A stretch of 64,000 bases of DNA from Chelonoidis abingdonii. Taxonomy: Eukaryota > Chordata > Testudines > Testudinidae. A model generated the notes under the pieces. That model had not been told where the DNA came from and ran no database searches. It was given only the letters and a program-made list of their open reading frames with translations. This document shows positions 17,943 through 62,307 of this stretch, piece by piece. The stretch covers positions 62,244,399 to 62,308,398 of the forward strand of contig NC_133773.1 in assembly GCF_003597395.2 (NCBI RefSeq). Reading direction: 5' to 3'. How positions within the stretch are numbered: position 1 is the stretch's first letter; every line of letters begins with the position of its first letter. Made by a program: the position numbers and the translations under genes.

Positions 17943-18324
17943 CTAGATTTTGCATTTGTCTTTATTGAATTTCATCCTGTTCTATTTCAGACCATTTCTC
18001 CAGTTTGTCAAGATCATTTTGAATTCTGATCCTGTCCTCCCAAGTATTTGCACCCTCCCAGCTTGGTATTATCCACAAATTATAAGTGTATTCTCTGTAC
18101 CATTATCCAAAGAATTTATAAAGATATTGAATAAAACCGGACCCAGGGCAGATCGCTGTGGAACCCCGCTTGATATGTCCTTCCGGCTTGATTGTGAACC
18201 ATTGATAAACTAATCTCTAAGTGTGTTTTTCCAACCAGTTCTGCACTCACCTTATAATAGGTTTATCTAGGCAACATTTCCCTAATTTGCTTATGAGAAG
18301 GTCATGTGAGACAGTATGAAAAGT

Positions 18325-18585
18325 CTTAGCCCTGGTCTACTCTGGGGTGGGGGGGAGATCGATCTAAGTTACGCAACGTAGCTGAAGTTGACGTACTTAG
18401 ATTGACTTATCATGGTGTCTTCACGGTGAGTCGACTGCTGCCACTCCCCCGTTGACTCTGCCTGCGCCTCTCGTGACGGTGGAGTACAGTAGTCAATGGG
18501 AGAGCGCTCGGGGGCTGATTTATCGCGTCTAGATCGATCATTGCCTGCCAGTCTGATGGATAGTGTAGACATACTCTTACTAAAG
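18325..18585. mobile_element. hAT-like MITE inserted in CR1
   Basis: Starts CCTGGTCTACTCTGGGG and ends ATAGTGTAGACATACTC. The inside has AAGTTACGCAACGTAGCTGA, GAAGTTGACGTACTTAGATT and GATTTATCGCGTCTAGATCG. This is the GTCTACAC MITE family common in sauropsids. It splits CR1 wording ACAGTATGAAAAGTC / TAAAGTTGAGATATAAC. Confidence 0.75.
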
Positions 18586-18837
18586 TTGAGATATAACATA
18601 TTTGCTGCTTCCCTCCTAGACACAAAGCTTGTTATCATGTCAAAGAAGGATATTAGGTTGGTTTGCCATGATTTGTTCTTCACAAATCCACGTTCACTGT
18701 TATTTATCACTTCTTATCTTCTAGGTGCGTGCAAATTGATTGTTTGCATATTTGCTCTATTATCTTTCTGAGTACCAAAGTTAAGCTGAGGGGTGTGTAA
18801 TTCCCCAGGTTGTCTATATTCCTCTTTTTATATATAC

Positions 18838-18949
18838 TCTCTCTCATGCCCGTCACCCCAGTCGGGGTATGGACCGCCAACCACAGATCTCCAGAGTCCT
18901 CTATCCTGGGCCATTCGCTCTAGCTGGTTCCAGGTGTAGCCCATTTTTT
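18838..18949 (-). pseudogene. Frameshifted C-terminal tail of the RTE ORF
   Basis: After DLQADSKK the main frame reads WATPGTS and stops at 18920. The next frame, entered at the T6 run at 18944-18949 (A6 on the coding strand), reads [18 protein letters not shown] and then a VVGG..P block ending just before the TA-rich terminus. The W..L..MAQDR..W pattern is the usual RTE C-terminal ending, so a one-base slip in the homopolymer probably separates it from the body of the protein. Confidence 0.6.
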
Positions 18950-21913
18950 GCTATCAGCCTGAAGGTCGCGTCTCCAGGTGTTTCTTGGACGGCCTCTTTT
19001 CCGCTTGCCTTGGGGGTTCCACCGCAGTGCCTGTCTGGTGATGTTAGTTGGCTGCTTGCGTAGTGTATGTCCTATCCAACCCCACCTTCTCCTTCTGATT
19101 TCTTCCTCTGCTGGGAGTTGACGGGTCCTCTCCAAGAGGTGGATGTTACTGATGGTGTCTGGCCAGCGGATCTGGAGAATCCTTCTGAGGCAGCTATTAA
19201 TGAAGGTCTGGATCTTCCTGGTGGTTGTTTTGGTTGTCCTCCAGGTTTCAGCTCCATACAGTAGGACTGATTTCACATTGGAGTTGAACAGTCGAATTTT
19301 TATTGCCAAAGACAGCTCTCTGGAGCTCCAGATGTTCTTGAGCTGTAAGAAGGCTGCTCTTGCCTTACCAATCCTTACTTTGATGTCTGCGTCTGTGCCA
19401 CCCTGCTGGTCGATGATGCTACCTAGGTAGGTGAAGGACTGCACTTCTTCCAGGGAGCTTCCATTCAGTGTGACTGGGTCGTTGCTGATGGAATTAATCC
19501 TAAGGATCTTGGTCTTGTCCTTGTGAATGTTGAGGCCAACCTGTGATGACGTGGCTGCCACAGTGTTGGTCTTCTCTTGCATCTGCTCTTTACTGTGCGA
19601 AAGGAGTGCAAGATCGTCAGCAAAGTCCAGGTCATCAAGCTGGGTCCACAACGTCCACTGGATTCCATTCCTACGCTCGTAAGTGGATGTCTTCATAATC
19701 CAATCGATGACGAGGAGAAAGAGAAGTGGTGACAACAAGCATCCTTGTCTGACTCCAGTTCGCACCTGGAAGCTGTTAGTGAGCTGCCCTCCATGGATCA
19801 CTCTACAGTGTATACCATCATATGAGTTCTTGATCAGGTTGACCACCTTTGCTGGAATGCCGTAGTGCCGAAGGAGCTTCCAGAGGGTCTCTCGATCCAC
19901 GCTATCGAACGCTTTCTCATAGTCAACAAAGTTGATGTACAACGAGGAGTTCCACTCCACAGACTGCTCGACTATGATGCGAAGCGTTGCTATCTGGTCC
20001 GTGCATGATCTGTTCAGCCGGAAACCTGCCTGTTCATCTCGTAGCTGTGGATCGACGGCATCCTTCATTCTCTCTAAGAGAACTCGGTTGAAGACCTTCC
20101 CTGGCACCGACAGGAGTGTGATTCCTCTATAATTGGCACAGTTGCTAAGGTCTCCTTTCTTGGGGATTTTGATGAGATATCCCTCTTTCCAGTCTGCCGG
20201 AATCACTTCTTCTTCCCATATCTTCTCAAAAAGGGGGTACAGCATTTCCACTGAAGCATCCAGGTCTGCTTTCAGGGCCTCTGCTGGGATGTCATCAGGT
20301 CCAGCCGCCTTCCTGTTCTTCATCATGGTGATGGCTTTTCTGATCTCATCTCTGGTTGGTTTATCGCAATTAATTGGGAGGTCCTCGTTGGCTGGGTTAA
20401 TGTCTGGTGGATTTGGTGGTGCTGGTCTGTTCAGGAGTTCCTCAAAGTGCTCCGCCCATCTGTTCATCTGTTGTTCTATTCCTGTTATAGACTTTCCCTG
20501 CTTGTCTTTAACGGGACGTTCTGGCTTGCTGAACTTTCCAGACAGTCGCTTGGTAGTATCATACAGATGTTTCATGTTACCGCTGTATGCTGCCTGCTCC
20601 GCTTCTGCTGCCAGTTCATCCACATACTCTCTCTTGTCCTTCCTAATATTCCTCTTCACTGCTCTGTGGGCTTCAGCATACTCTTTTTGAGCTTTGGCCT
20701 TTGCAGCTCTAGTCCTGCTGTTGTTGACTGCTGCCTTCTTCTTCTTTCTGTCTTCTATCTTGGTCAAGGTCTCTGCTGTGATCCACTCTTTCTGCTGGTG
20801 TTTCTTAATTCCAAGCACTTCCTGGCATACTAACCTAAGTGTGTCTCTCACTTTCTGCCATCTGTTTAGTACACTGTCTTCCTCTTCCTCAGACCGATCC
20901 TGTAATACTGAAAACTTATTCTTCAGCATCAGTCCAAAATCTTCCTTGGTCTTACGGTCCTTCAGAAGGCTGACGTTGTACTTCACTCTTCTGTCTGACG
21001 TATCTATCCAGCTCTGCTTCAGCTTCAGCTTCAATCTAGCCACCACTAAGTGATGGTCGGACGCCGCGTCTGCTCCTCTTCTAACTCTAACGTCCTGCAA
21101 GGATCTTCTGAACTTCTTGCTAATGCAGACATGGTCGATCTGATTTTCTGTCGTACCTGCTGGTGATACCCAGGTACTCTTGTGGATCCGCTTGTGAGGA
21201 AAGATGCTACCTCCTATGACCAGGTTGTTAAGTGCACACAGATCCACAAATCTCTCTCCATTCTCACTCATCTCTCCCAGAGCGTGGGTCCCCATGACTT
21301 GTTCGTATCCTGTGTTGTCAGGTCCAATTTTGGCATTAAAGTCTCCCATAAGGATGATGATGTCTTTGTCTGGGAGAATCTCTAATATTTTCTGGAGTCT
21401 GTTGTAAAAATAATCTTTGTCCTCCTCTTCGCTGTCATTAGTTGGAGCGTAGCACTGAACAACATTCATCTTAATCCTCTTCATTTTAGTTCTGAAGGAT
21501 GCTGTGATGATCCTGGGACCATGTGCCTCCCAACCAATCAGTGCTCTCTGTGCCTGCTTGGACAACATGAAGCCTACTCCCTGTGTGTGGGGTGCGTCGC
21601 TCTCTTCATGTCCTGAATACAGCAACAGCTCTCCTGTCAACAGTCGTCTCTGTCCAGCTTGCGTCCATCTTGTTTCGCTAATGCCTAATAGGGTCAGGTT
21701 GTTGCTCCTCATCTCTGCTGCAACCTGCGCCGTCTTTCCTGACTCGTACATGGTCCTCACGTTCCATGTGCCTATGGTAATCCTCCTGGTTGCAAGAAGG
21801 GTAATCAGCTTAGTGGCTTCCTCATGGCTTTCACCACCCAGCGTCATGCATCTTCGAGTTGAAGACCCTTCTTTTTCCAGGGTAAAAGTCTCTGTTATCT
21901 CTATTGTTGGCAT
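18920..21913 (-). CDS. RTE endonuclease-reverse transcriptase (ORF2-like)
   Basis: Open without a stop for 1029 codons if read from 22009, but codons 1-32 lie in (TA)n and host CR1 sequence. I therefore place the start at the ATG at 21913 (codon 33 of the open frame); residue numbers below count from 22009. The APE-type endonuclease is at about 78-330: TWNVRTM (81-87), SETRW (111-115), [15 protein letters not shown] with D223/N225, and ASDHH (316-320). A basic linker follows, with RKKKKAAVN near 421-429. The reverse transcriptase is at about 555-860: [54 protein letters not shown] and the catalytic FADDLALL with D798/D799. The C-terminal region includes YGAETW and the RRRWGWIGH block. The product would nick target DNA and reverse-transcribe its own RNA. 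All core catalytic residues I can identify are present. The extreme C-terminus is out of frame (see the frameshift at 18944). Placement in the RTE clade is from motif recognition; the exact family is not known to me. Confidence 0.85.
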
Positions 21914-22195
21914 TTCTGTAGCAGGTTGATTTTTTTTATATATATATATATATATACAGGTACTATATGTGCCCTTTTCCAGTCCGCTGGGATCTCTCCT
22001 GTCCTCCACAAGTTCTCAGAGATAATCGCTAATGGCTCAGAGATCTCTTCAGCCAGTTACTTAAGTATTCTAGGATGTATTTTGTCAGGCCCTGCCCACT
22101 TGAAGACATTTAACTTGTCTCTGTAATTCTTAACTTGTTCTTCTCTTGTTTTAGCCTCACATCCTACCGTATTTACACTGATGTTCACTAGGTTA

Positions 22196-22322
22196 GGCTG
22201 ATGCAGATGTGCTGCTGTAAGCTCTCTAGTGTAGCTGCTCTAAGCCGACAGAGAGAGAGCTCTCATGTCGATGTAATCCATCCCCAACAAGCAGAAGTAG
22301 CTGTGTCAGCTCTGTTTCACAT
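22196..22322. mobile_element. hAT-like MITE fragment
   Basis: GCTGCTGTAAGCTCTCTAGT, GTAGCTGCTCTAAGCCGACA and the palindromic AGAGAGAGCTCTC belong to another GTCTACAC-type MITE family. The left terminus is truncated or merged with the CR1. Confidence 0.5.
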
Positions 22323-22329
22323 GTGTGGG

Positions 22330-22934
22330 TCCTCACCACTCCCTGTCCCCTTCTTTGAAGCAGGTGTTCAGGGTTACTGCCCTGGGAACTGCAGGGCACC
22401 CAGTGGATGTGGCTGGCTGCAGACAGGCGCGTGGGGCAGGACTAGCTGGAGGCAGGGGGTGTGGAGCTGGCTGGAGATTGATGTGAGGCTGGCTGGAGGC
22501 AGGGCAGGGGCTGACTGGAGATGGGAGTGTGGGGCTGCCTGGCTTCAGGCAGGGCCGCGGGGGGTGCAGCAGGATCTGGCTGCAGGCAGGGGGTGTGGGG
22601 CTGGCTGGAGGCGAGGGATGACTGTGGGCAGAGTGGCAGGTACTCACGGGGAGAGCGGCTTGGAGCAGCAGGATTCAGCCCAGGCCCAGCAGAACAGCTG
22701 GGGACCCACCAGGCAGCAGCCAGGGGTTGGGGGAGCAGCAGCAGGACCCATGCCCAGGGCCAGGCAGCAACCCACATGGCTCCTGCAGCGCCTCTAACGG
22801 CCGGAGGAAGAATTACATCACTTCCCAGCCTTAGACCATCAAAGCCTCAGCGCCCCCTCGCAGGGAAGTGGGCTCTAAAACTGCTTCAGAATTTAACAAC
22901 CGGCTCGCACGAACTGGCTCCAGCTCACCACTGG
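22330..22934. repeat. GC-rich segment with GGCTGGCTGGAGGCAGG minisatellite
   Basis: Between about 22425 and 22620 the sequence repeats variants of GGGGCTGGCTGGAGGCAGGG at 25-40-bp spacing. The right part, with AACAACCGGCTCGCACGAAC and AGCTCACCACTGG, looks like the end of a dispersed element. The open frames here (198 codons at 22201-22797 plus, 139 codons at 22521-22940 plus, and antisense ones) are Gly/Ala/Pro-rich composition artefacts. Confidence 0.5.
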
Positions 22935-26907: not shown

Positions 26908-26976
26908 CTTCTCAGCAAAGATACCTAATGGAAAGGCCTTACATTTTCATCCTTCGATTCTGCATTTTGGAACGCA
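26908..26976 (+). CDS. TMEM131L: TMEM131L local exon 1 (PapD-like domain start)
   Basis: Acceptor TTTTTCAG before 26908, donor GTGAGT after 26976. Reads [20 protein letters not shown] then GTQ across the junction, beginning at phase 1 and ending at phase 2. [13 protein letters not shown] is the first strand of the PapD-like fold. A second AG at 26914-26915 would shift the frame and is rejected. The preceding coding exon was not found in the window. Confidence 0.85.
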
Positions 26977-29900
26977 GTGAGTATCTGAGATTATTAAGTA
27001 TCAGAGGGGTAGCCGTGTTAGTCTGGATCCGTAAAAGCAGCAAAGATGCATCCAACGAAGTGGGTATTCACCCACGAAAGCTCGTGCTCCAAAACATCTG
27101 TTAGTCTGTAAGGTGCCACAGGACACTCTGCTGCTTTCTTAGATTATTGTTCTTTTAATTAATAATTAATGGGTGGGCTACCAAATTGAGGCAAGTTTGG
27201 AATGAAAGAGTATTAGCCCAGATCATTCCTTTCTATGGGAGATCCTACAATAAGAGGACTCGAAGGAAGGAAATCATCATAGTGATCTCCCTAGAAAGAT
27301 CCCCAGACGCAGTGACCTGTTGAGGCCATCGTCACACGGGGTCCAGGCTCCCAGCAGCCCTCTTTCTTCCAGATACGCAGCAGTGAGGCTCGGAGCAAGT
27401 TGTAGGGAAAACACTGACATCTTTGTATGCTAATATGCTGACTGTTCATCTCCCACTGGGGTAGCCAGGCTAGTGTTAACAAAGGGAATTTTGTCAGAAA
27501 AAAGAGTGGTATAGACAAAGTGCGTAGATACTCTTCTGTCATTGCTCCCAAATCACGAGACATATGACTCATCACTGTGACTGCAGTAAATTTGCTGGGT
27601 TTGAGGAGCATTGGTCATTGGGGGTCAGGTAAAAACGGTAGCTTCAGGGTTCAGGAGGAGAACAGATAATGTTAAAAAGAGCATGTGTGACTGTAGACAG
27701 GAAACCAGTGAACACTGAGTAAACAGTATTTGTAAGTGATTCCTGTAGCTGTACCAGTTGGGTTCTTAACATTTCATGCCTCTTAATGAGATAAGTTGCC
27801 TTATTATTAGTTATTGTAAGTTATTCTTGTTGTATTACAAGCCTACTCCCAGATCTGCTAAGGCTTAGATCTAGGAGTGAGCTTGTTATAGGACAAGAAT
27901 AACACTTAAAAGAAATCAACTCTCTGAAAAATCAAATACATTGCTAGAATCTGTAAGTGTTTCTTTGCTGCTTAAGTTTTGGCTAGAGGAAAGCTTTTAA
28001 AGAATGATTAGCAGCTTTATCCCATCAGTTATCAAAAAGCACAATCCCCTTGTGAGCTAAAGGAAAGTTCCAGAAGAAGCAGAGAATGTCTGCATCAGAA
28101 ACAGCTGTCAAACTTATTTCCAAAAATATATGATGTAAAAGAATCATTTTGTCAACTGACCAAGCAAGGCTTTTACTTCTCTTAAACATAATTTATTAGT
28201 TTCTTCAAAAATCTGTACCCAGCAAGTAAAAAACAAACAAACAAAAAACAAACAAAAAAAACAACCTGACCCCCCCCCTTCTCTCTCTCTCTCTCTCTTT
28301 CACAAACTGTTAATGACCGTATGTGGTTTTTGCTGTGTATAACCAATATGTTTCAATGTCATTTATTTTTCTTTATATTTTAAAGGGTCAAATTGGGGGT
28401 TGTGTAAGCTTAAAATATGTTAAGCTGATAAATTGTTACATATCAAAATGTTTTAATAGCACCAAAATGTGTTGATTTTTCTTGCAAATTACCAATGTTT
28501 ATAAAATCAGTAATACTTTGGTTTTTTTCCCCTTAGGTTACTGGGACTGCCCAGATCTAAAATGCTGTATGCTTACAACCCTAGTAGGGATAGAGAAGTT
28601 GTAGTGAATTCAGTGTTTACAGCTACTAGACATTTTCATGTGTCTCCTGTTCATAGCAGGGTGAGTGTTGATGTACTCTTGGAAACTATGCAGTGGCGGT
28701 GTGCCAATGCTTCATGTTTATTTTGGCCTAAAGTTTTTGTTCTGTGTTCTTTTTCCATGCTACCCCCAACTCATTCTTTCTCTGTGTTTGTTAGCTTGGG
28801 TTTTTGTTTCACTTATACCTGGATATATAAGGAGAAAAAATCCAAACTCCTACAATAAGAGAGGCTCTTTTTAACATGGCTCAGAAAGGAAAGAATTCAT
28901 TATTGTTAAGATACTTTGTTAAATCCCACTCTACTGTATGTACCATAGTGCTTCTGTGGAGTTCAGTAGTTCAAAGGCCTGAAGTTGTTTATATCCTTGG
29001 ATTCTCAATCTCTTGAGTATAGTCCTGCATTTTCCTTATAAAACAGATTTACAATTCAATGATTTTTTAAAAGATTTTGGATTGCAGTTATAAAAATAAC
29101 AAACTTCAGGACAATTGTTTAACTAAAACTCTCTTTGTGAAACTTAAGAACATCTGAAGTATGTAAAAAGTACACTGCGGTGCTCAAGTTGACAAAGCCC
29201 AGATTTAACCCTCTTCTGGTGTGCTGGTATTTTTTTTTCCCCATTTGCTTATATCCAATCACATTTTGACTAGGGCTGAATGAATGGTTCAGCAAACAAT
29301 CTTGAACTTGGCTCACATAAATGGGGAAGAGTTAGGATTTTCCAGACATAAACTTGATTTTGTTTTTATGAGTTAGGCTCAGATTTGGTTGCCAAACTGT
29401 ATGCCCAACCTTAACTGTGACTCAGTTCATGAAGCATCATATAGCTCATGCGTTGGTTCACTTCACAGTCTGTACTGAACTACAGAGAACCTATTGTTGG
29501 GCTGAAACATTTTTGGACATTGGTATTGTGTAGGTAGACAAGCTTTTAGAGCTTTCTGTTAAGTGTCTTCCTGACCATTTGATATCCTAAAAATTCTGGG
29601 CTCAACATTGCACATTGCTGAGTGCTTTCAGTTTTTGTCTTTATTGGGAGTTGAGTGTGCTCAGTACCTGGCAGGATGAGGCCCTGCATTTGTGGGGTTC
29701 ATGCATCTGGATTCATATATAGAAAGGTCTGATGATAGATGATGTCAAAGGGAAGGAGCTGCAATTAGCTGTATTGAGCAGCAGGCTTTTATGTTGTCTC
29801 TTTAGGTGATTCCAGCAATGGGAAAAATGTCTTTCAGAGTCCTCTTTCTGCCAACAGAAGAAGGCTATATTGAAAGTTCATTATTTATAAATACCTCATC

Positions 29901-32900
29901 TCATGGAGTACTTTCATATCAGGTAACTTTTCAATTGACTCATGCTTCAAAAATGACCTCTTAAAGACATTAACTTAAAAATATAACTTTGAAAATATGT
30001 TGAATTCCTGACATAACCAGGATAAAGGGAGCAAAGTTTGCTGTTGACTAAGACCCTGGTCCTACAAACATTTATGTATGTGCTTAATGTTACTGTCATT
30101 ACTGAGACTACTCATGGTAATCCGCTTAAGCACGTGTGGAGTGTTTGTAGGATGGGGGTCTCTGTCCACCTGCCACAAATAGCTGCTTCTACACCATGTG
30201 CCAGCATAGCATACGCTATGCTAGGATGTAACATGTATTAGAAGTGTTTAGGAAACAGACTTACTGAGTCCTGGGTAGGTGGTCTTTCAGCTACGGTGGG
30301 GTTCTTTTGTGATAGATGCAGTAGAGTCTCACAGGGTGGAAGGGGTAAGTTGTAGCAGTTTTAGGCTTCTTGAAAAATAAAACAAAAGGATAAGTGATGG
30401 CTGGTGACCTGAAGACTCCTCTTATTCTGGTTGCCTGAAGAATTCACCACGTATTTCTTGAGTTATTTGACATTGAAATATTTTAAAGGGGATGTTACAT
30501 ATTTGCTGTTTTTTTTCCTGCACTTTGATTAATTTTTAAATTAATTTCCTCTATTATTTAAAAAAACAACACCAACTTGAACCACATTGCCCACTCCCTC
30601 ATCTTGAGACTGCTATAGGAAAAAAAATCTCAAAATGAGATGTAGGTCAACTGACTTGAAAAATATACCTGATAATGCACACTATTGGTGTGTGGCACTG
30701 GAAGAGGCTCAGAAATGTGGTTGGGATTTTTCTTTTTAGGGAAGCTAGAAGAACAATATACTATATACTGATTTATCATCTCACTTTTATGTCCAGCTTC
30801 TCGTCTCATTCATTTAGCTTGTTGCTCTTCATACTTCTCATTTCACCTTGTCCTTTTGTGGACAAGTTTTAGGAAGGTCTTTTATAAAACGGCCAGTCAT
30901 TTCACTCACCACTGAGGCTGAATGTATTAAACCAAATTCATTCCTGGTTGTAATGTACAAATTTCAGCAGAGCTACTAACTTACAGCAAGATTTTACTAG
31001 TGTGCAAAGATTTTTATGGCAGTCATCTTTAATGGAATAAACTAAGAGCTTTAACTGTAACAGGGCCACAAACTCTAGCGTAAGCATAACTTCTGTGGTG
31101 CAGGAGGTGTTATAATGCACTGTGACAGCGTAAAGGATATAAAACACATTTGATGTTTCTAGACCATATTTATATTTCAGTGAGTATGTAAAAAAAAAAA
31201 TATATATATATATTTTAAATGTTCCTTGTGGAAAATCCACTGCTGTGATTTTGAGTTATGGGAAAATGAGGGTGAGTATACTTTTTCACCTTAAAATAAA
31301 GCAAAGACATCTCTTTGGACCAGTAAGCAAAATACGTTCCAAAGTTAACATGTGGCTCTTTCACTGAAAAAAGTTTTGGGGGTGAGGAATAAGAAAGCAA
31401 TAGAAGAGATTGAAAATTCACTTCTCAGCATGTTCAGTGTGGATCTAAGATTTTAGAAGAGACTAATGAACCCTCTGCCCTACCTGTGACATCACGGGGG
31501 TTGAGGAGAACTGCACATTTTGCCTTCTATGGTTCATGTAGGTTTTGGGGCTGCTGATAGGTTGGCACTGATGTACAGGCTGGATAAAGAAAACAGTAAA
31601 TATCTTATTGAAACACAATCAGCAAAATCATCTTTAAATAAAACCTGCCTTAATATTAGAGGCAGAGGATTATCCCAGATGTGGAAAAATTAAACTCTTG
31701 CAGCTTTATGGTCCTCTCATGTTTCTATTCCATTCTGCATTTCTCTGCAGATTTTAAGCTTGTTTGAAAAAGTCTTATTCTGTTGTGAAGATACAACCAT
31801 CACGTGTAATGTGCTACTGTTCTGTTAACGCAGCTTTGAAGAAAACGGTGTTCAGCCAAATAACAGTAGTAAAAGTATGAATTCACTGATTCCCCGTGCC
31901 ATTCTTCTCAGTGCTCTGTGAACAACAAAGCCTACTTCGTACATTTTAAAGATGACATGGAATTTTTAAAACAAGTTCCCTCTTTTGCTTCTAGGTAAAA
32001 AGGCGTGAAATGTGTGTTCTCCCTGAACATTCTTTTTGATAGAAAAGCTGTTGGCCAGAGGTGTCTGATATGGTGCAGTTCACAAGAATCAGCAGCAGCA
32101 TCCACATATATGATGTGTCTATTAAAATTGCCTGAAAGAGAATTTGTTTTTAATTGTTTGGAGACACTTATATGTTACATTGATGGGTGCCTTTTTATTA
32201 GGGATACATCGTAATGTCTGAATGAATGAATGCACAAAGGGACTTATAGTTACTTTTTAGAGTAGAACTCTCTGCACAAAATGCTGCATTACCTTTTTGT
32301 TTTTAAAGTGTAATTTTAAAATCTAGTTGATTTCCTGGAGTCTTACTAGCAAAATGAAGTTTCATGGTTTGTGATAATTACCTAAATATCAAATGTTGGA
32401 ATAATATACTGTTTTTACAACAGGTATTTGGAATGGGATCTGTAGGAACCTCTCCAGAAGATTCTGATAAGCAGCTAGTAAATACCTGTTTACTGCTTCC
32501 ACGTATCCAAAACATCCAGATTTCACCAACACTGGTACAGTATGCGTTTTTTTAAAAACACATTAGTAAACTTAGAAATACTTGCAAATAAAAATGTAAG
32601 TTCCTGTATGCAAATAAAGACACACATTAAAAAATCTTTACTTGTGTTACTAGCTAATTAATTTTTTTCAAAAACTGACTTCAGTTTGCATCACTTGAGA
32701 TTTTTAGATTTTTGCATTTCAGTAAGATTCACCCTCCTACAACATGGTCAATCTCACTTTCTCTTAATCTCATTTTCTGGTTTCTGTGCAGTGGCACAAG
32801 AATGTTATGGTAGGAATTACAGCATGGTGGGGAGGTAAAGTTTAAATTAAAAAATTGGCATGAACAGTTGTTTATATGGTTAACTTGTGTATATTTGTTT

Positions 32901-33150
32901 ACAGCTTGTTAAACTTCTTTTTTAACCGTGGTGCCTACAACTGGGTTGAAAGCTCCCCAGAACAGTTATTAATTTAAAGGTGACCCGCAGAGTTAAAAAC
33001 ATTGTGACCTTTTCTGCATGTCAATAATGTATAAAATAAGCCCATAGAGATTTTAAAAAGTTATTAGCCTGTTTGCCACTGCCTTGAATCTTGTGTAATC
33101 ATTTGTGCCTACACAAAGTTTGAATAAAATGCTGCTGTATCAGAGTGGTG

Positions 33151-33183
<33 letters not shown>

Positions 33184-36100
33184 CCTCCCCTTGTTTTGAA
33201 GGAGTTCAAGGCATTTGAGGGTCAGACCCATTGTCTCTTACTTTAGGGCTGGTGTACGTATGACAGTTATTCCAGAATAAAATGGTGTGAATTTAAAGCA
33301 GAGCAGCTATTCCAGAAAAACTCCCATGTGTAGATACTCTTATTCTAGAATCAGAATACCTTGTGCTGGTTTAGCGTAATCCATTTCCAAAGAGAGGAGA
33401 ATGGGAGTAGCTGTCAAGAGGCACAGCAGCTATTGAGGGAAGGGGAGACTCCCGGGGAGGAAGGTGGAAAGGAAAGTCAGCAGAAACCTATAGGCAGGGT
33501 GGGTAGAAGGAAGAAGGGGATCAGCAGCTTCCTGGGGAAGAGGCATGACAGTTTGGACATTAATAAAGTCCCTCCCCCGCTCCTTTTTTTTTTTTTTAAA
33601 CTATACTTCATCCCCCATTTTAAAGCAAATGTGTATTTTAATATAAAAAAACACAGCTCCCCCCCCCCCCCCCCCCCAGCCCTTCTCTAGTTTAAAAATG
33701 TGGCTTTCCTTCTGTGGTTTGTTTGTGCCTGTGACTTTTTCTTCTGGACCTGCAGTCTTCTGATTTGGGCAGGACCCTTCTGACTTTAGGGAGTGAGTCC
33801 ACCACATTCTCAGTTTCACTTTAAATAGTGAATGTATGTGCAGGGTCTGGTAGCTGTGGGATTCAACTCACTCTGCTTAGTTCAGATATAGAGAGAGCCA
33901 AGTCCACTAAAAAAAAAAAAAAAAATATATGGAGGTATACCTATCTCATAGAACTAGAAGGAACCTTGAAAGGTCATCGAGTCCATTCCCCTGCCTTTAC
34001 TAGCAGGGCCAAGTACTGATTTTTCCCCAGATCCCTAAATGGCCCCCTCAACGATTGAACTTACAACCCTGGGTTTAGCAGGCCAAGGCTCAAACGACTG
34101 AGTGATCCGTCCCGGACGCTGTGCATCCTTCTCGCCACTCCTCAGTTTACACATAGTGTGGGTAATTTTTTAGAGAGTTTTTTGGAATTTCACAGTAGTC
34201 AAAGCAGCATACGCAGCTTAAACTTCTCTAACAAGTCCCAAAATAATCTGAGGCTTTACAGCTTCTTCTTCTTTAGGAATTTTCTCAGGCTATGTAGATG
34301 CCTATCTATAAAAAAGGGAAATAAGGACAACCTGGGGAATTATAGACCAATCAGCTTATTTTCAGTACTCAGAAAGATAATGGAGCAAATAATTAAGAAA
34401 TCAATTTGCAAACACCTAGAAGATAATAAGGTGATAAGTAACAGTCAGCATGGATTTGTCAAGAACAAATCGTGTCAAACCAACCTACTTCTTTCTTTGA
34501 AGGGTAGCAAGCATTGTGGAGGGGGAGTGGGAGGAGGAGTGGTAGATGTAATATAGCTTGACTTTAGTAATGCTTTTGATGCTGTCTCGTATGACCTGCT
34601 CATAAACAGACAAGGGAAATACAACCTAGATAGAGCTACTATAAGGTGGGTGCATAACAACTCTCTGGGAATGGTTTTCCAACAGTTAACAGTGGTTCAC
34701 AGTCAAGCTGGAAGGGCATAACAAGTGAGGTCCCGCAGGGATCAGTTCTGGGTCCAGTTCTGTTCGATCTGTTCATCAGTGATTTAGATAATGGCATAGA
34801 GAGTACACTTACAAAGTTTTCAGATGATGCCAAGCTGTGAGGGATTGCAAGTGCTTTGAGGGATAAGATTAAAATTCAAAATGATCTGGACAAACTGGAT
34901 AAATGGCCTGAAGAAAATAGGATGCAGTTCAATAAAGACAAATGCAAAGTACTCCACTTAAGAAGGAACGATTAGTTGCACACATATGAAATGGGAAATA
35001 ACTGCCCAGGAAGGAGTACTGGATAAAGGGATCTGGGAGTAGTGTGGCCAGACAGAAAGTATGAAAAATCGGGACGGGGGTGGGGAGTAATAGGAACCTA
35101 TATAAGAAAAAGACCTCAAAATTGGGACTGTCCCTATAAAATCAGGACATCTGGTCACCCTATCTGGGAGTCATAGTTGATCGCAAGCTAAATACGAGTG
35201 AACAGTGTAACCCTGTTGCTAAAAAGCAAACATCATTCTGGGATGTGCCGAGGAGCTTCAGGGATGCGGAGCAGAGTAGGAAGCCCTGCCAAACCTCCTC
35301 TCCCACCCCATACCACCTCGGTCCGGTCCCCCACCTCCCTCATTACCAACAGGACCCCCGGACCTCTTTCTCCCCCCCCCCAGCACCGCGAGCCCCACCA
35401 GTTTTAGTCAGGGTAGGTATTTTTCATAAAAGTCAGGACAGGTCACGGCCCCGTGAATTTTTTGTTTATAGCCAATGACCTGTCCATGACTTTTACTAAA
35501 AATACCCATGACAAAAATATCCTTAATCATTGTGACAGGTACAGCTTGTTAACACCACTTTGGATAAAACAGGGAGAGTGTGTGTGTGTGTGTGTTTGTG
35601 GAGGGGGCGGGGGATTAGCTCTTTAGGAATAGGGAACTAGAGATTTAAGACAGAAGAAATCCTGGAGGAAAATCCCAGTTGCAGCCAAGATCACAGAGGA
35701 GGCTTATTGTATATTATTGTTTTATTTAGTATTAAAGCTAAACTCCTGGGAGGGAGAGGGTTTGAACAGTACGTTGCTGATCCAGCAAGCACGCTTGTGT
35801 GCAGATGTTTACAGAATCAGACTAATTGAGGCCCTATCTAGGCTAGGTTGTGGACACAGAGGGAAATTACACTCAAATTTACCCTCCACACAATCCCTCT
35901 GGTGCTGGTTGAACAATATTTTGAAAACAGTCCAGCCAGCAGTCTGTGATGTTTTCTCTGTTTGGATGGCTAAAAGTATGCTTCACTGATGATGATTATT
36001 ACTAAGAACCACCAGGCTGTTTGTTTTTTGTTTTGTTTTTTTAATGAATTATCAGAATGTAATAATATGAAGTAGAATCTTTGAACTTTTATGGCTGGAA

Positions 36101-39100
36101 AGGGAGGGAACGTACTAGCTCAGTTGGTCCAAGCTCTTGCTCTTTCTTTAAAGGTTTCTGTCTCTATGATCTCTACTTGGTGCGAACCAAGAAGTGACTT
36201 GAAGATTTGTAGTAATTTTGACACTTAGTCAAATCTGTTTTTTTTCCTCCCTTGGAAAATTAGCATTCTTCCTCTATTCCCACCCTGCACACTTCTCCCT
36301 CTATCCCCCCGGCCCACTTTCCCATTTATTTTGCCATTAAAAATGTGTTTTTTTTTAAGTAAACTGGGATTTTTGTTGGAAATTATCTTAATCATCAGAC
36401 CAATTGCTTCTTGCTTAATGGACAATTTTTACCCTTGTTTGTATCTACTATCCCTGTATATTCGGTACCATATTCAGAGCAAAACAAAATGTCCATAATA
36501 GCAAACCATGTAATCATACATTCATAATTGCCACTTTTGCCCATAGTAATTAATGAGATGAAATAGTCTCTAGTTACATTTTTACAAACTGATGGGAAGC
36601 TTAGAATATCCAAAATATACCAGTGTATAATGGCCCTGGTATTAAAGACCAGGGTGATTTTAATATTTGTGTTTGCATGTGTGTGTGTTAGAGCTGAATG
36701 GAGAATGGTAATTCTGTTTCATGGAAGATTTCAAGATTTGATTTCTTTTCAATTCAGAAGCAAACCAAAAGTTTCAGAATTCTCCATGGAAGGGAATTAC
36801 CATTTTCTACCCAGTCCTACTGGAAGTCCTAACTCTGCGGCCCCTCACTTGGCAAGCTGCCCATGAGCCCAGGCTGCTGAAGAGCTGTAAGCCTAAGATC
36901 TTGGGAGCCAGGACTCCCAGGGCTTTGCAGGAGCCCATCATGTGTGTTGCTCAGGAGCCAGGCAGGCAGGAGCAAGCAGGAGCAGAATTTTATCAGAATT
37001 GAAGCATATCTACAGAACCTTTCAGCTTTGGCAAATCCTGATGAAAAACCATTGAGCTGAAATTGTGTGTGTGTGTGTGTGTATACAATATAAAATATAT
37101 AGAGAAGCTACTGTAGATTTGTTAATAGGTGAAGGGAATCAAAATAGGTCCATTATTCCTGTCACACAGGGCTCATTCTAGATTTTTTCGTTATGGGTCT
37201 TTGCTTTTTCATTTTGCTGCTTATGAGAAGAAGGCGGCACTGTATAATTTCACATTCTGTTATGATTCATATGCCATAGCAGTTTTCTGTGTTATAGGAC
37301 AAAATACTTACATGATCAAGAAGTGAAGATGAAGGTGGTGAAGCTTTTTTTCATGGAAATGTAGTGTAGTGATTCTAAGATTCCTTATTTTGTCCTCTCT
37401 TTTGTGATATATGCATCCTGTCAATTATGTAAGACACCTGGCTTGACAGGCGATGTATATTGTCTGTCATAGCACAGTGAAGAACTCTTTTCTTTTCTGA
37501 AGTTGCCTTTGTATATTTAAAAAATCCCTATAGACAGCAGATGAACATAAAATACAGCTGTGTTTTGGAATTTTTCTTTCCTTTCTTTTTTTTAGTAGCT
37601 TCACTCTTTTAAAATACCAAATTACAGCATCCAGGGCATTCAAAACAAAACCATTATGATTGGGATTGGTTAACTGGTGCACCAAATTGGCTACTTGACT
37701 ACTGCGCTCCTAGCAATTGTGGGCAGCAAAAGGAAGGCAGGAAACCCCTGATCTAAGGCATTTAAAATCTAGGCTGGCCAGAGTGCAATTCAGAAATATA
37801 GTAATCACCATAAAAGTTGGGGGAATAGAACTCTGTTGATAGGTCATTAGGATCCAAAATCTGGGACAATAATAAATCATCTTGTGAATCCTCCTCTTAT
37901 TAAGGATAAAATTTTCTCAAAGCATGTAGGGCTTTCATAAGGCTTGCCTCATCACGTAATCCATGATTTAAGGGTTTAAGATAAACTTCATCCTATAAGA
38001 AGTTGTTAAATCACATTTGATACATAAGGGGGAGGTGACATGAGAAATGAAACATGACATGAGAAGCCTCCAAAATAGCAGTGAGGGCCAAACTGAGAAG
38101 CAAAGGTATACGACTAGGAGACAGAATAGCCTTCACTCCAAGCAGAGAGAGAAGTGGCTCAGACAACGCTATAGAGTCAGAGCATTACATTTAGTTGACC
38201 TTTATCAGGAGAAAATCTGAAGAGTCTTACCTGACCAAGCACTTTGAGCAAAGGAAAAGAATGCATGAAGTAGTGGTGTATAGGCTAGTGAAAAAAATAT
38301 AGTTCTTTCCAGGAAGGTTCAGAAGGGAAATCTATGTTGGATAAGGTTTATCAGACCAATTAGCTGACTTGAAAGTGGTCTGCTCACATATGCCCATTTT
38401 CTTGTTGAAACTCCACTGCCAGTAATAGCTGTGGAAGGTTAATTAATGATACACATATTGGATTTAAGAGCTTGATCTACTTGCATAATTTGATTAGGAC
38501 AAAATAAAAGTGAAATTGGAAAAAGAGGTGAATTGGTTGAGACTACCATTCCTCGACAGTGCTGTGCTAAAAAAGGAGTTCTTTTAAATTGTTTTTTAAA
38601 TTATGTGATTAATCTTTGGAGGTGTTAGAACTCCCCCTTGTGGGATTCTGCAATATTTGCTATATAAACTGATTTAATACCAAAGAAATCATATTGACTT
38701 TTTGTTTTGTTGTGCTCTTACACAATCACACATCATGTTATAAAAAAAGCTTTATGCATGTGGTGAATTTACTGTGTGATAAAACCACCACCACCCCCTT
38801 ATCTGTAGAAAAAGGCTTCAAAGCATCCCCTCCTGATTGTATTTCTTTCAGAATTTTAAATGCATGTCTCTTCCCTGAGCAAATGTTGGAATGGATTTCC
38901 TGTGAAGTATTTATGCAAAGGGTCATGAGAAATAAAAAATATGCATTAGGGTATGGCACCCTTTAACATTGCTTTCACAGTTCTGCCTCTTTCAACTTCA
39001 AATTTTTTTATTTTTTTTTTTTTAAAGGAAAAGATTGAGTAGATTACACTGGTTCCTTGCACCTTTGGAGACCTTGATTCAAATTTGAGTGAGGTCACAA

Positions 39101-42100
39101 ATGAAAAATTAACTGTGATCTTAAATTAGTCCCCAAACCATCACGTAATTTGGCATAATTGACAGTCACTGATAAGGAGAAGCACAGAATTATTATGGAT
39201 CGTTGGTATGACAAACCATGTGTGACAGTATTTCACATAGCTTGCATGCATTGTCTGACTTTAGACAGTGCTACTGCATGAACATTTTATAAGCTTGCAA
39301 AATAAACACATTCAGTTTTTTTCTTTCAAATTAATAAAAAGGTGAAGCAACGGAAAATAATTTCTCTGTTTTGTGTTATTTTATTTCTTTGTTTTAGTCT
39401 GAGGCCTGAACATCAGGGCTGCATCCAGGAAATCTAACCAGAAATTTAGCCTACCAGCAGTTTTTTTAAAATATGTGATTCAAAGAAAATATACAGGAAA
39501 ACAAGGAAAGAAGCCTTTATTGTATGTAAAAAAGGCATTATAGGAGAAAATCAAGTAGGAGTTTAAGATTTATAAAGGTCCATCATATGTTGCTGCTGTA
39601 TAAAATGTTTAATAATAGTTTGACATGAAAGTAGAAGTGGAAATGATACAATTTCTCATTGAGCAGTGATATTGGCTGCCATATTACCCTAAAATAATAG
39701 TCAAATTTTAAAAAAAAACATACCACCGTATCTCCTTGCTGATGTTACTGTCAGGGATTACATTTTATTGAAATTGAAAGAATTGACAACATTGCCATTT
39801 GTTTTTCGCTATTTTGTTTGTTTGTCTTTTGCTTTTCCTACAGCTAGTACAATGAAAATAACGAAGTGAACTTCACATTCATTTATAGTCAGTTTTCACT
39901 GGGAGGTTCTCAGTGATGCAATGTTTGGGTGGCATATATTGAACAAAAACATGTATCTAAAACCAGTGATTTAGATTTATGGATTTCAAAAACAAATGAA
40001 ACTGTTAGATTTTGTGTAAAAGCTTGGCCTTCAGAAGCCTACATTTTGGAGAAAAAACACTGTATCTTTTGCAATCTCAATAGAAATGTAATGGGAATAG
40101 TTTTTATTGGCCTTACAAAATGTAAACTGTGGGCCAAATTTGACTGGATAGAATCTGTTAAATCAAACTCTTTGAACTATTGTCTTAATTTTTACTTTTC
40201 TAGGCAGAAACTACGAATGCCAGTCTCTTACAAGTTCATCTTGAATGCAGTTTACACAACAATATGTGCCAACAACTTAAGGTATGAATGTACATTTCAT
40301 TTTAGGGCTGTCAATTAATTGTAGTTAACGCATGTGATTAACTAAAAAAAAATTAATCGCAATTAATCGCAGTTTTAATCACACTACTAAACAATAAAAT
40401 ACTAATTGAAATGTATTCAGTATTTTGGGTGTTTTTCTACATTGTCAAATATGTTGATTTCAATTACAACACAGAGTGCGAAGTGTACAGTGCTCACTTT
40501 ATATTATTTTTATTACAAATATTTGCACTGTAAAAATAACAAAAATAGTACTTTTAAGTTCACCTCATAGAAGCACCATAGTTTGAAAGTCCAATTTACA
40601 AATGTAGATATTTTTTCTTTGTTACTTAACTGCACTCAAAAACAAAAACCATGTAAAACTTTAGAGCCTACAGGTCCACTCAGTCCTCCTCCTTATTCAG
40701 CCAGTTGCTAAGAGAAACAAGTCCGTTTACATTTACAGGGGATAATGCTGCCTGCTTCTTATTTACAGTGTCAGCTGAAAGTGAGAACAGACGTTTGCAT
40801 GGCACTTTTGTAGCTCGCATTGCAAAGTATTGTCAAGTGATTAAAAAAATTAATCACTATTAGTCACACTGTTAAACAGTAATAGAATACTATTTATATA
40901 AATATTTTAGATGTTTTCCACTTCTGTCTTTTGGAATCTCAAGGCTGTGAGAAGTCTGGGATCCAGATTGCTTCTCTTACCTTGTACCTTACCATACTAT
41001 TTAAGGTCTGCTGGATGCTCTTTCTCTCAGTCCCTGAGCTTGGATACTGTTTGTTGCACATCTGAAGGTTCTCCATCTTTGGAATTCATTCCGCTAGTCT
41101 GTTTATAGCACATCTCATTCAGAGTGAAGGATTTTACAAATGAAAATGTTTTACAGTCCCTAAGGCCAGACCTTCCAGTTGAAACTAATGTTACATTGGG
41201 ATTCTTTTGAGGCTTAACCCTTAGTGTCTGTTTAAGGTTTTTTATTATTTATCACTTGTATCACTATGGCACCTCGGAGTCTAAGTCATGGACCAGGACC
41301 CCATTGTACTATGCTTTGATTTTACTTTTTTGTGTAGGTGTGTGTGTGAATGGAGTGTTTGCAGAATATGGCCTGGAGACTGCAGCTTTCTGTTTATCCA
41401 GAAAGAGGCGCAGCATTGCCAGGGAAGGCTTCCCCATGCTGCCCCCAGAAAATGCCTATTTGAGTGGAATTTGCTCTCTGTACCTGTGCAGTCCTTTGCC
41501 TCTACTGAGAATTCCATCAAAAGTTCTAATTACTGCCCCGGAATTGCTACCTTTGTGATGCACGTAGAACATTTGTCCATTAGAAATTGGCTGAGACCAT
41601 CAATTCAGTATGTTTTATTCAAATAGGATTATTTTATGAAATTTCTCCTCCTTTTTTCCACCACCTTTCCCCCTCCTTTATGTCACTCCAGAATTGCTGT
41701 TTTATGTCTGACAATCCAGTGCTGCTAAAAATGAGCTTAGTACTAAGAATGGAAAACTCCCAACAGGAATTTGTGGATCACAGACAGTACTTACTGGAGA
41801 ATCTTTTTGTAGTTTATGTAGCAGTGGACAAAACTGAGACCTCAGGTAAGTGCAAGACGTGACTGTTAATTTTAATAGAAATTGTTTCTATATTCACTTC
41901 AGAATCTGCTTTCACAAATATATTGATCTCAGTGACATCCTCTTTATTTTGCTGTTTAATGCGAAGGCCACATTAGTGAAGTGAAACTGTTTAACATTTT
42001 GTGTTTAATGCAGAATTATTGTGGTGTTTCTTAATGAAAGAGGTAGCAATTCTCTGCCATTATAAACTACATTTGTTACATTCTTTTCTTTTTTCCTTAA

Positions 42101-45100
42101 GATTTGTCTGTGGAACAGAAACATCCTTTTCTTAGGTGTCTGTTTAAATAGTACAAAATATGTGGTGTTGATGATTGCTTTTGTTTTCACCTTTCAGCAA
42201 AAGTGCAATTAATGAAAATTGTAGTATTCTAATTTCTAAGGAATTAGATTAACAGAACTAGGCCTGCAAAGAAATCAGGACTTAAAAAAAGCAGGCTTTG
42301 TGGAAGTTACTGTAATAATATAATACAAAGGATCTTCATATCATCATTTTTGGAGGCTAGAATGCCACATGCAAAGTAAACATCTACTTAAATTTTTTGT
42401 ATCATTCATTTGTTGGGTAAATAGATAATTTTTCTCCAAATCCAAGGGGTGAGATATCTTTGATTTTTAATTATTTATAGTGCACCATCACCTTTATAAT
42501 TGTTTAGGTTTTTTGGAACATTAGAACAAAAATATAGTTTTCTGCCAGTTGTACTGTCTGGTAGAAGAAAAAATGACTTGTGAAAACAGATAAATGATTC
42601 AATTATCACTTTTACCACATTTCAAGTCTGGGTGCAAAACACATTTACCGTTCTTCTAGAGCCTGCTATGTAGTAGGAAGGATTGGTAATTGACTGGAGT
42701 GATACTTACATTTGACTGATGGAGCTGATATATCCGCAGTAAATCTATTTTCCCTCACGTCTGAGATAGCAGTGTTTTGTTGCACTGAGTTGTGAAAGCG
42801 TATTTATTCTTACACTTGTGGATAAATGTTCACATCTGTTATGTCCATAGGTATGGCTGTAATATCCTTTTTAATGGATTCAGGTGATAGAAGAGCATTT
42901 TAAGAAAGCTATACACTTCCTCAATATAATGCAAATCATAAATCCCTATACACTAGGGTAAAGGCCTGTCATAATTCCTTTTATGATTCTGGCAATGGGA
43001 AGTTATAGATCTTTTGCCTTGATGATCCTGTGGGCAGCTTTTCAACTTCAGATAATAATGTTTAATTTTCTTTTTGTTGATATGCTTAATTAAGAGAGAC
43101 TTGGAGTCTGCGTCTCTTCTCACTACACCAATGTGAATCGAGAATAACTCTTTTGAAGTCAGTAAGCTAGATCATGTGTACTGTGGCCTGCAAATTTGGG
43201 GAGGAGGCTTTAGAGCACATTTGTGAATCCCTGATCTTGGGATTACTTTGGCCCCTACACTGACTTAGTGCGGTTTTAGCCACACTCCTCTCCAGCAGCC
43301 ATACTTCGTATTGTTTCATGATCTATTGATTTTGCATTAATTATTTTGATTGCTTAAGAATGCCTAGTTAGCACTTTGAGACTTGGCAGGTTCTTGTCCC
43401 AAGATCATGCCCACTATTTATTAAAATTACTGTTCAGTTGGGAACCTCGATGTGCATGGTTACATCATTCACATACAACACTGGAAGAACCTTCTGTTTT
43501 TGTAATAGTTTTATTAACACAGTGAGAAAAGTTACAAACACTCCAGCCCAGCAAGGTGGATAGAGATAATTCAGAATATATCTCTGAGCATTCATATACT
43601 TACACCGTCCCTTGCAAAAGGACCTGAAGTGTTTGCTATCATCCTCATCATCAGACTTATCATCACCGCCAGTGGTCACCACCCTGAGGTCTCCCAAGAG
43701 TTACATCTCCCACACAGGCCAGAATGCAACTTTTATAATGTGTTACACTGTCACTATGCCTAATGCGTATTTTCAGTAGGGGTTTTTCCTCTTTTCCTTA
43801 TTTGTATTTCCTCACCCTACTAATGATGGGGTGCCTTTCTCCCTTAGGTTACTAGCCTATTTATCTCAAGCTTGTTAATTACCATGGTACTCTTGTGGTC
43901 AGACCTCTGCTGATGTACCTAACTTAAAATATCCCAAGCTGGTATAAATTGGCATCTTGTGGTTACCTGTCAGCAGTTGAGTTATTACTGCATTCTGTCT
44001 TGTGTCTTTTATAATCTAGGGTTACTCCAAGTTAAGTGCGTATGCGAAGGCTTTTGTACCTTATGCTTTGTTACCTAAGCTATTGTTTTACAGGCCTTGT
44101 AATGGTTCTGCCTTAACTTATACCCCTGTCTTACTTGGCAAATACCTATTCCTATGGACTACACTATAACATGGCCTGGAAAAAGGGAGGTAAGGCTGGC
44201 TCTGTGGATAAGGCTGTGAGCCAGCTGGGGATTTAGGAGCTGGTGGTAATGCCAGCTTTCCAGCTGATTTTTGCCATCATAATTAGGGCCAAAGATATGA
44301 TGTGAGAGGAGAGTCAGGCCCAATGTGTGATTAACTTCTGATTTTTACAAGAGACATATTTTTGCATAGAATTATTCTATCTTCTAATTTTCATTTGAAT
44401 ACGTTAGATATTGTTTCTCATATTAATGTCTGACAAAGCAGTGGTACTTTTATCTTTGGTACTTATCTGGATGTTCATTTTTTTGGACAGATGATTCCAC
44501 AGTAAACATGTATGTATTGCATTCAGGGAACAGCGTTTTACATATACAGGTAATTATGTTCTTAATGCAATCATATTTGGAGGTATTGAATTTAATTAGG
44601 ATATTAACTAGCTTGACTACTTACTTTTTGCTGTCGCCAAATAGCACACTTCTTTATTTTAAGATGCATTTAACACATTTAAGTTTGTATAATGTCCAAC
44701 AGAATTTGTAGGTTGTAAGCTACAGCTCAGATAACGATTTTTTATGTGCACGTTAACCTAAATAAAAGCCACAAAACTATTATCACATATGATAAATGAC
44801 AGTTCCTTCTAAGTTTGTCATGAAGATGAATTAAACAAATACTAAAAATATAATAATAATGGTAATAGTGCTACAGGGATTGGTAATATATCATTTTAAT
44901 GCAGGACATACAGCGTTTCTCACAAAAAGATACATCATCTGTGCAGTTTGAGCCAATACAACTTCCTTCTTCAACCACAAATTTTACAAAAGTTGCTTCC
45001 ATTGTTTGTAAAGGTACAGTATGTATATTTTTTGTATGTAATATGATTACATGAGGTACATATTTACCTTATAAGATACTCTGAAAAGGATCAAGACCAA

Positions 45101-62260: not shown

Positions 62261-62307
62261 GTAATCTTTCCATTTATATAATTCATTTTGAAATTATTGG
62301 ACTTGGG

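What the first reader, a model, noticed from the sequence alone, without database searches (positions are those of the whole stretch)
18838..21940. Nearly intact RTE-type LINE in otherwise dead repeats
A minus-strand frame of about 1,000 codons keeps every endonuclease and reverse-transcriptase motif I can identify ([42 protein letters not shown]). The CR1 and MITE sequences around it are riddled with stops. The contrast implies a much younger insertion. RTE elements are known for horizontal transfer (BovB), and the protein wording reminds me of RTE elements described from schistosomes and other parasites, so a lateral origin in this lineage is possible. That last point is inference.
Basis: partly seen in the sequence, partly recalled or inferred. 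Interest (0 to 1): 0.75.

Follow-up and report, generated by a model that had tools for sequence, protein, structure and literature searches.

The report
Young RTE jumping gene in tortoise
This is one copy of a young, many-copy jumping gene (an RTE-type LINE) in a turtle genome, probably a tortoise's; relatives in snails, fish and schistosome worms suggest its family has moved between animals, which is already reported for this group, so the find is real but mostly of a known kind.

Summary
The minus strand carries an endonuclease + reverse transcriptase frame open over 997 codons (18920-21913), between 12-nt target-site duplications inside an older LINE. It is not intact: the frame slips near the 3' end, losing a conserved tail of ~33 residues; ~93 nt of leader are missing; and the family's start is at 21847, not 21913. 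The host is a turtle, nearest Chelonoidis over 16 TMEM131L exons. In its genome 40 near-full-length copies, picked by likeness, differ by a median 0.7%; none share flanks, 37 have end repeats, 21 are open through the C-terminus. A 3'-end pattern has 344 matches. Of 20 copies taken in map order 15 are 5'-truncated, and 18 usable ones diverge 0-3.9% at non-CpG sites. So this is an ordinary LINE family, recently and perhaps still active, with an older layer. The 120 listed relatives are 60-87% identical (periwinkle 82%, bichir 79%, schistosomes 66-69%), and the tree conflicts with host phylogeny. Transfer is likely at family level, but a 2026 paper already reports it for Perere-3/Sr3 RTEs and lists turtles and a tortoise. 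Youth of this copy is no evidence for recent transfer; entry into turtles could not be tested.

The parts
18837..21932 (-). RTE-type LINE insertion (5' end uncertain by ~5 nt because the target ends in A's and the element's homology begins with A's); lacks ~93 nt of the 5' leader that full-length copies have
   Evidence: In 38 of the 39 other scored copies homology starts at query 2-7 of 21940-18838 and ends at 3098-3103; target-site duplication on both sides; conservation of the leader drops sharply ~90 nt upstream of CCACC in 36 copies, where the direct repeats lie
21933..21944 (-). target-site duplication, copy 1 (TATATATAAAAA)
   Evidence: 12-nt exact repeat
18825..18836 (-). target-site duplication, copy 2
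   Evidence: 12-nt exact repeat
18920..21847 (-). ORF from the family's conserved start (MTLGGES) to the premature TAG; 975 aa of about 1002 in the family
21053..21772 (-). apurinic-type endonuclease domain (Exo_endo_phos)
   Evidence: Pfam PF03372, E 9e-9, residues 80-319 of the 1029-aa frame
19415..20167 (-). reverse transcriptase domain (RVT_1) with FADD
   Evidence: Pfam PF00078, E 8e-35, residues 615-865
19256..19354 (-). DUF6451
   Evidence: Pfam PF20049, E 2.8e-16, residues 886-918
18944..18949 (-). A-run at which the reading frame slips relative to the family
   Evidence: one alignment column missing relative to most copies, also missing in L015 and L025; the next frame continues the conserved tail
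18837..18848 (-). short 3' tail (CATGAGAGAGAG); other copies carry a (GAGT)n-type repeat here
   Evidence: 3' ends of 40 copies
   Evidence: reads ...[48 protein letters not shown] in one frame; weak RT similarity at 21955-22200
17949..18836 (-). older LINE, downstream half; contains a ~298-bp foreign insert at about 18324-18621; further pieces down to ~17671
   Evidence: 82% and 75% identical to the second copy at 34303-34948
34303..35247 (+). second copy of the older LINE, used as a yardstick
   Evidence: RVT_1 hit in 34062-34553
26915..62265 (+). coding stretches of TMEM131L (residues 83-1090 of the Mauremys protein); the LINE lies upstream of these, antisense, probably in an early intron
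   Evidence: tblastn of P0228 against the window

Best explanation
This is a recent, slightly 5'-truncated and now probably dead copy of an RTE-clade non-LTR retrotransposon of the Perere-3/SR3 group. The family moves by target-primed reverse transcription: one protein nicks a target site, primes cDNA synthesis there and leaves a target duplication of some 8-15 nt (anatomy shown; chemistry inferred from the known families). In this turtle it has left several hundred 3' ends, most of the sampled copies cut short at the 5' end, over a period long enough to give 0-4% divergence, with a strong young layer and many copies still open. The family as a whole has very probably crossed between animal phyla; when and how it reached turtles is not shown here.
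For: Domains and motifs. Own-genome DNA search: 40 scored matches of 589 candidates, 98-100% identical, on 11 contigs. Among the 40: pairwise K2P mean 0.0090, median 0.0072, range 0.002-0.026; median 0.36% from the majority letter; star-like tree, 218 of 318 variable sites carried by one copy only; private coding changes pN/pS 0.81, shared ones 0.68. Separate insertions: 37 of 40 have an exact direct repeat of 8-15 nt (by a rough estimate of mine an 8-nt match would arise by chance in about one in six such searches; three of the 37 are only 8 or 9 nt long), in 33 of 40 placed 81-98 nt above the start of homology to the window copy, and no flank matches another at E 1e-5. 21 of 40 are open through the conserved C-terminus. 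344 matches of a 29-letter 3'-end pattern against 0 for the reversed control; a 3' 500-nt query scored 40 of 527 candidates at 98-100%. Of 20 copies in map order 15 are 5'-truncated, and 2 (L068, L074) have an inverted 5' part. The interrupted older LINE reads on across the two flanks. The SR3 description gives 3,211 bp, 10-12 bp duplications, AT-rich sites and a (TAAG)n tail (PMC1291365).
Against: The 40 copies were picked by likeness to the window copy, so they overstate youth; the less biased 20 reach 3.9% non-CpG divergence, mostly measured on short fragments. The 46 scored protein matches included one at 96% and one at 89% with stops; at DNA level these are 96.5 and 97.6% identical. CpG retention is not a clean clock here: the LINE has observed/expected 0.43 against a mean of 0.22 (maximum 0.41) in 36 other blocks, but the older LINE's downstream half with its insert has 0.54. 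The frame slip sits in an A-run and could be an assembly error; L064 and L074 show stretches dense in 1-3 nt indels in this assembly. RTE clade membership was not tested in a tree with other clades. Three of the 40 copies (L025, L041, L048) showed no end repeat.
Confidence: 0.9

Rival explanations
1. Recent horizontal arrival: the family entered the tortoise or turtle lineage from an aquatic or parasitic source within the last tens of millions of years and then burst.
For: Young star-like cluster; among named relatives covering 94% of the query the nearest are a periwinkle (82%) and a bichir (79%); the path WINDOW-Littorina (0.247) is like three paths within the genus Schistosoma (0.238-0.287); holding five vertebrate rows together is rejected (AU p 1e-6). 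Brann et al. report a patchy distribution including turtles.
Against: Nearest sequence found is only 87% identical (unnamed source P0001), so no donor is in sight. The 4 vertebrate rows of the nearest clade can almost be held together (p 0.048). Older copies exist (0-4%). Fast rates in schistosomes weaken the path comparison, and the closest schistosome pair (S. curassoni, S. haematobium) is only ~0.04 apart. No other turtle genome could be searched.
Confidence: 0.35
2. Long vertical residence in turtles with repeated waves, this copy belonging to the latest wave; the cross-phylum transfer is ancient or happened in other lineages.
For: Divergence spread 0-3.9% in the map-order sample; Brann et al. 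list Chelonoidis abingdonii, Trachemys dorbigni and Cuora mccordi with 78, 104 and 692 hits over 1 kb, so the group is in several turtle families; turtles evolve at about one third of the human rate (PMC4054807, passage), so 4% may be tens of millions of years (inference).
Against: No copy more than ~5% from the majority was seen in 18 usable ones, though the pattern used (up to 3 mismatches in 29) would miss many older ones.
Confidence: 0.5
3. The open frame is kept by selection because the copy serves the host (domesticated gene).
For: 0 of 225 near-invariant columns changed.
Against: 21 other copies are open further than this one, and private coding changes run near neutral; this copy has lost its conserved tail and its leader. 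Its integrity is explained by youth.
Confidence: 0.02
4. Contamination of the assembly by parasite or snail DNA.
For: Similar ORFs do occur in records labelled as bacterial MAGs (P0020, P0036).
Against: The copy is nested in an older repeat in the same 64 kb as 20 coding stretches of a turtle gene, and 40 copies with distinct flanks lie on contigs of 42-374 Mb.
Confidence: 0.01

Closest known systems
SR3 / Perere-3 RTE elements of Schistosoma (Laha 2005 PMC1291365; Brann 2026 PMC13155389)
   Same: EN and RT (and DUF6451, Brann Fig. 5 legend) in one frame, ~3.2 kb, target duplications of about the same size (10-12 bp reported for SR3), tetranucleotide 3' tail; schistosome proteins 66-69% identical
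   Different: Turtle copy groups with snail, bichir, Garra and lungfish elements, outside the schistosome clade; tail is of (GAGT)n type instead of (TAAG)n; the SR3-right ORF is reported as 922 aa, with the note that likeness extends beyond it, against ~1002 aa here. Which schistosome proteins are SR3 or Perere-3 was not established by accession
Perere-3/Sr3-like RTEs of turtles (Chelonoidis abingdonii, Trachemys dorbigni, Cuora mccordi; Chrysemys picta; Brann 2026 Table 2 and text)
   Same: Same host group; maximum hit length 3,189-3,199 bp and 78-692 hits over 1 kb for the three in Table 2
RTE-like proteins of Littorina saxatilis (P0002, P0003) and Erpetoichthys calabaricus (P0006)
   Same: 82, 81 and 79% protein identity over 94% of the query
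   Different: Different hosts; copy number and age there not examined
BovB, AviRTE, sea-snake RTE-Snek
   Same: RTE-group LINEs with reported horizontal transfer (PMC13155389, PMC7846101, passages; PMC4844689, listing)
   Different: Brann et al. place Perere-3/Sr3 apart from BovB and AviRTE; not compared by sequence here

Membership tests
[quoted passage not shown]
[quoted passage not shown]
   my trees hold only close relatives; the clade name rests on 66-69% identity to schistosome proteins and on PMC1291365 / PMC13155389
[quoted passage not shown]
   19 of 21 endings of open copies were printed: 16 end GHE*, 2 RHE*, 1 runs on; the stop lies within the (GAGT)n-type tail. The repeat is not AT-rich, as PMC1291365 states for the clade
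[quoted passage not shown]
   37 of 40 with 8-15 nt repeats of different sequence; 15 of 20 5'-truncated
Perere-3/SR3 group | EN, RT and DUF6451 in order, ~3.2 kb | tested here: met
   about 3097 nt shared plus ~93 nt of leader
Perere-3/SR3 group | nested with named SR3/Perere-3 sequences rather than SR2 in a tree | tested here: inconclusive
   S. curassoni row lies 0.61 changes per site from the window, but no row was confirmed as SR3 by accession and no SR2 row was included
Recently horizontally transferred into turtles | absence in related hosts or element divergence below host-gene divergence | not testable with these tools
   of eukaryotes only the window's own genome was open to DNA search
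CR1 clade | CR1-type RT | tested here: inconclusive
   the LINE copies in the window called CR1 share only 24-42% over 55-147 aa with four RTE proteins; no named CR1 reference was compared

The most novel reading that the evidence does not exclude
A land tortoise lineage received this RTE separately from other turtles, from an aquatic or parasite-borne source, and the element is still jumping in a slow-evolving, long-lived reptile, with internally deleted derivatives (such as L070, L072) travelling on its machinery.
Probability: 0.15. Interest if true: 0.6.

Novelty: new member of a known kind. Interest (0 to 1): 0.3.

Why it matters
Brann et al. say that transfers beyond schistosomes and their snail hosts still need work that contrasts element and host-gene distances. 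A turtle genome with dozens of near-identical full-length copies, a measurable older layer and TMEM131L as linked host sequence is a good place for that test. It also shows that youth of a copy and recency of a transfer are different claims.

Tried and rejected
DNA relatives in public collections: genome contigs gave two Maribacter MAG contigs at 23-24% identity and viral contigs none, so no synonymous divergence against other hosts could be computed. Rfam had no match in the window at gathering scores. Searching a truncated query for annotated partial turtle copies gave no turtle name among the best 120 of 2642, nor did the full query among 120 of 684; names are given for only part of the proteins and annotation often masks repeats (recalled), so this says little. 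Domestication and contamination were rejected (see rivals). The CpG clock was dropped because the older LINE's downstream half with its insert has a higher value than the RTE. A pair of pattern counts meant to size the older layer did not complete; the layer was judged from 20 copies instead. Using the 89%-protein copy as query and other RTE proteins as queries also did not complete.

Full report
What is there. On the minus strand the window carries one open frame of 1031 codons, 22015-18923. The insertion is bounded by TATATATAAAAA at 21933-21944 and 18825-18836. A second copy of that older LINE from 34303 onwards differs from the first by K2P 0.226 over 701 sites; it begins at about the same point, so it does not itself show the whole empty site. 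The first also carries a ~298-bp insert at about 18324-18621.

How intact. In the protein alignment with 120 relatives the window copy has 0 mismatches at 225 columns conserved in at least 98% of the others (other rows: median 2, maximum 11); under neutral change this bounds divergence since its last active ancestor at about 0.6% (at the 95% level 3 of 322 columns differ). But the frame slips in an A-run at 18944-18949, so the conserved C-terminal tail is encoded in the next frame (94 of 120 relatives match that tail), and ~93 nt of leader are missing. The copy is probably dead (inference). The same out-of-frame end (WATPGTS) occurs in one other relative, P0021, and the same alignment column is missing in L015 and L025, so the A-run seems slip-prone, or error-prone in assemblies.

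Host. Twenty stretches of the window match Mauremys TMEM131L (P0228, residues 83-1090). The single-exon search listed 120 of 172 proteins, turtles first at 91-98%. Over 12-16 shared exons identity is highest with one Chelonoidis isoform (880/902; another 846/890), then 857/902 with Gopherus and 857/903 with Mauremys in their better isoforms, 643/764 with Alligator; isoforms differ, so this is a guide. The host is a turtle, most likely a tortoise (inference). No match for residues 1-82 was found in the window at E 0.05, so the LINE probably lies in an early intron, antisense to the gene (inference).

The family in the host genome. The whole assembly (2.256 Gb, 3849 contigs) was searched. The DNA search scored 40 of 589 candidates: all 98-100% identical (L049 97.999% by my realignment), 39 of 40 starting within the first 7 bases of the query, L050 at base 142. 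I fetched all 40. Pairwise K2P is 0.2-2.6%, median 0.7%; non-CpG median 0.5%; copies differ from the majority letter at a median 0.36% of sites. The window copy has 15 differences and one indel, 5 of the 15 seen in no other copy. 21 of 40 are open through the tail. Thirty-seven of 40 have exact direct repeats of 8-15 nt at the ends (none in L025, L041, L048; unusually placed in L031 and L038; only 8-9 nt in L014, L027, L044), and no flank matches another: these are separate insertions, not segmental duplicates. A protein search scored 46 of 29,856 candidates, most at 97-99%, with one at 96% and one at 89%; those two are 96.5% and 97.6% at DNA level. A 29-letter pattern with up to 3 mismatches found 344 3' ends (0 for the control). 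15 of 20 start far inside the element or lack at least its first 170 positions, 2 are internally deleted with different junctions (L070, L072), 2 have inverted 5' parts (L068, L074), and 2 (L064, L074) are so dense in 1-3 nt indels that I suspect raw-read sequence. Leaving out L064 and L074, non-CpG divergence is 0-3.9%, median 1.2%. Turtles evolve at about a third of the human rate (PMC4054807, passages); with a recalled rate of 0.3-1e-9 per site and year the young layer is some 4-12 million years old and the oldest sampled copies some tens of millions or more. These dates are inference.

Mechanism. Nested insertion, target duplications of variable length and sequence, 5' truncation and inversion, a short 3' repeat tail and a single EN-RT protein are the marks of target-primed reverse transcription. 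This is read from anatomy and from what is known of the clade, not shown biochemically.

Relatives and lateral transfer. Of 684 proteins found, 120 were listed, 60-87% identical: best 87% (unnamed, P0001), Littorina 82 and 81%, Erpetoichthys 79%, Garra 78% over 77% of the query, Protopterus 75%, Schistosoma 66-69%. In a 40-row tree (39 of the 120 relatives) the window lies in a 12-row clade (100/100) with snail, bichir, cyprinid and lungfish rows, while other Littorina and Batillaria rows lie in other clades. In an 18-row tree the AU test rejects one clade for all five vertebrate rows (p 1e-6) and for all six snail rows (p 2e-86), but only marginally for the four vertebrate rows of the nearest clade (p 0.048). 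Old paralogous lineages could explain part of the conflict; the short path to Littorina (0.247, like three paths within Schistosoma at 0.238-0.287, though S. curassoni and S. haematobium are only ~0.04 apart) is harder to explain vertically, with the caveat that schistosomes may evolve fast. So transfer somewhere in this family's history is likely; its entry into turtles is not dated.

What is known. Brann et al. 2026 (PMC13155389; abstract, passages, sections 10 and 11 read) report Perere-3/Sr3 LINE-RTEs with patchy distribution and tree conflict, name Chrysemys picta, and list Chelonoidis abingdonii (78 hits over 1 kb), Trachemys dorbigni (104) and Cuora mccordi (692); they say transfers beyond schistosomes and their hosts need further work. 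Laha et al. 2005 (PMC1291365; passages and the first of three parts of Results) define SR3. Sea-snake RTEs are in PMC7846101 (passages; one of them is likest to a Chrysemys RTE in Repbase). A DNA transposon transferred into turtles is in PMC11008031 (listing and passages). Searches on turtle, Cuora, Chelonia or tortoise together with RTE or Perere-3 showed no closer paper in this library. I therefore file it as a new member of a known kind.

Noticed in passing
26915-62265 +: Twenty coding stretches of TMEM131L on the plus strand; the window's long ORF at 61588-62307 holds the largest of them.
   Followed up: yes
18324-18621: A ~298-bp insert in the older LINE that also hosts the RTE, absent from its second copy; looks like a MITE (recalled).
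   Followed up: no
22410-22731: GC-rich stretch with seven imperfect copies of a ~22-nt CTGGCTGGAGGCAGGG unit.
   Followed up: no
L070 (27-338 and 3028-3224 of the element), L072 (27-97 and 2478-3222): Copies that keep the 5' end and the 3' end but lack the middle, with different junctions: possible non-autonomous derivatives.
   Followed up: partly
L064, L074: Element copies dense in 1-3 nt indels, suggesting unpolished read sequence in this assembly.
   Followed up: partly
P0020 (Cetobacterium MAG), P0036 (Kangiellaceae MAG): RTE proteins 71% and 69% identical to the window's ORF sit in records labelled as bacterial MAGs, probably eukaryotic contamination.
   Followed up: no
P0021 C-terminus; L015, L025: The same out-of-frame ending WATPGTS occurs in another relative, and the same alignment column is missing in two genomic copies: the A-run near the 3' end may be a recurrent slip site.
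   Followed up: partly
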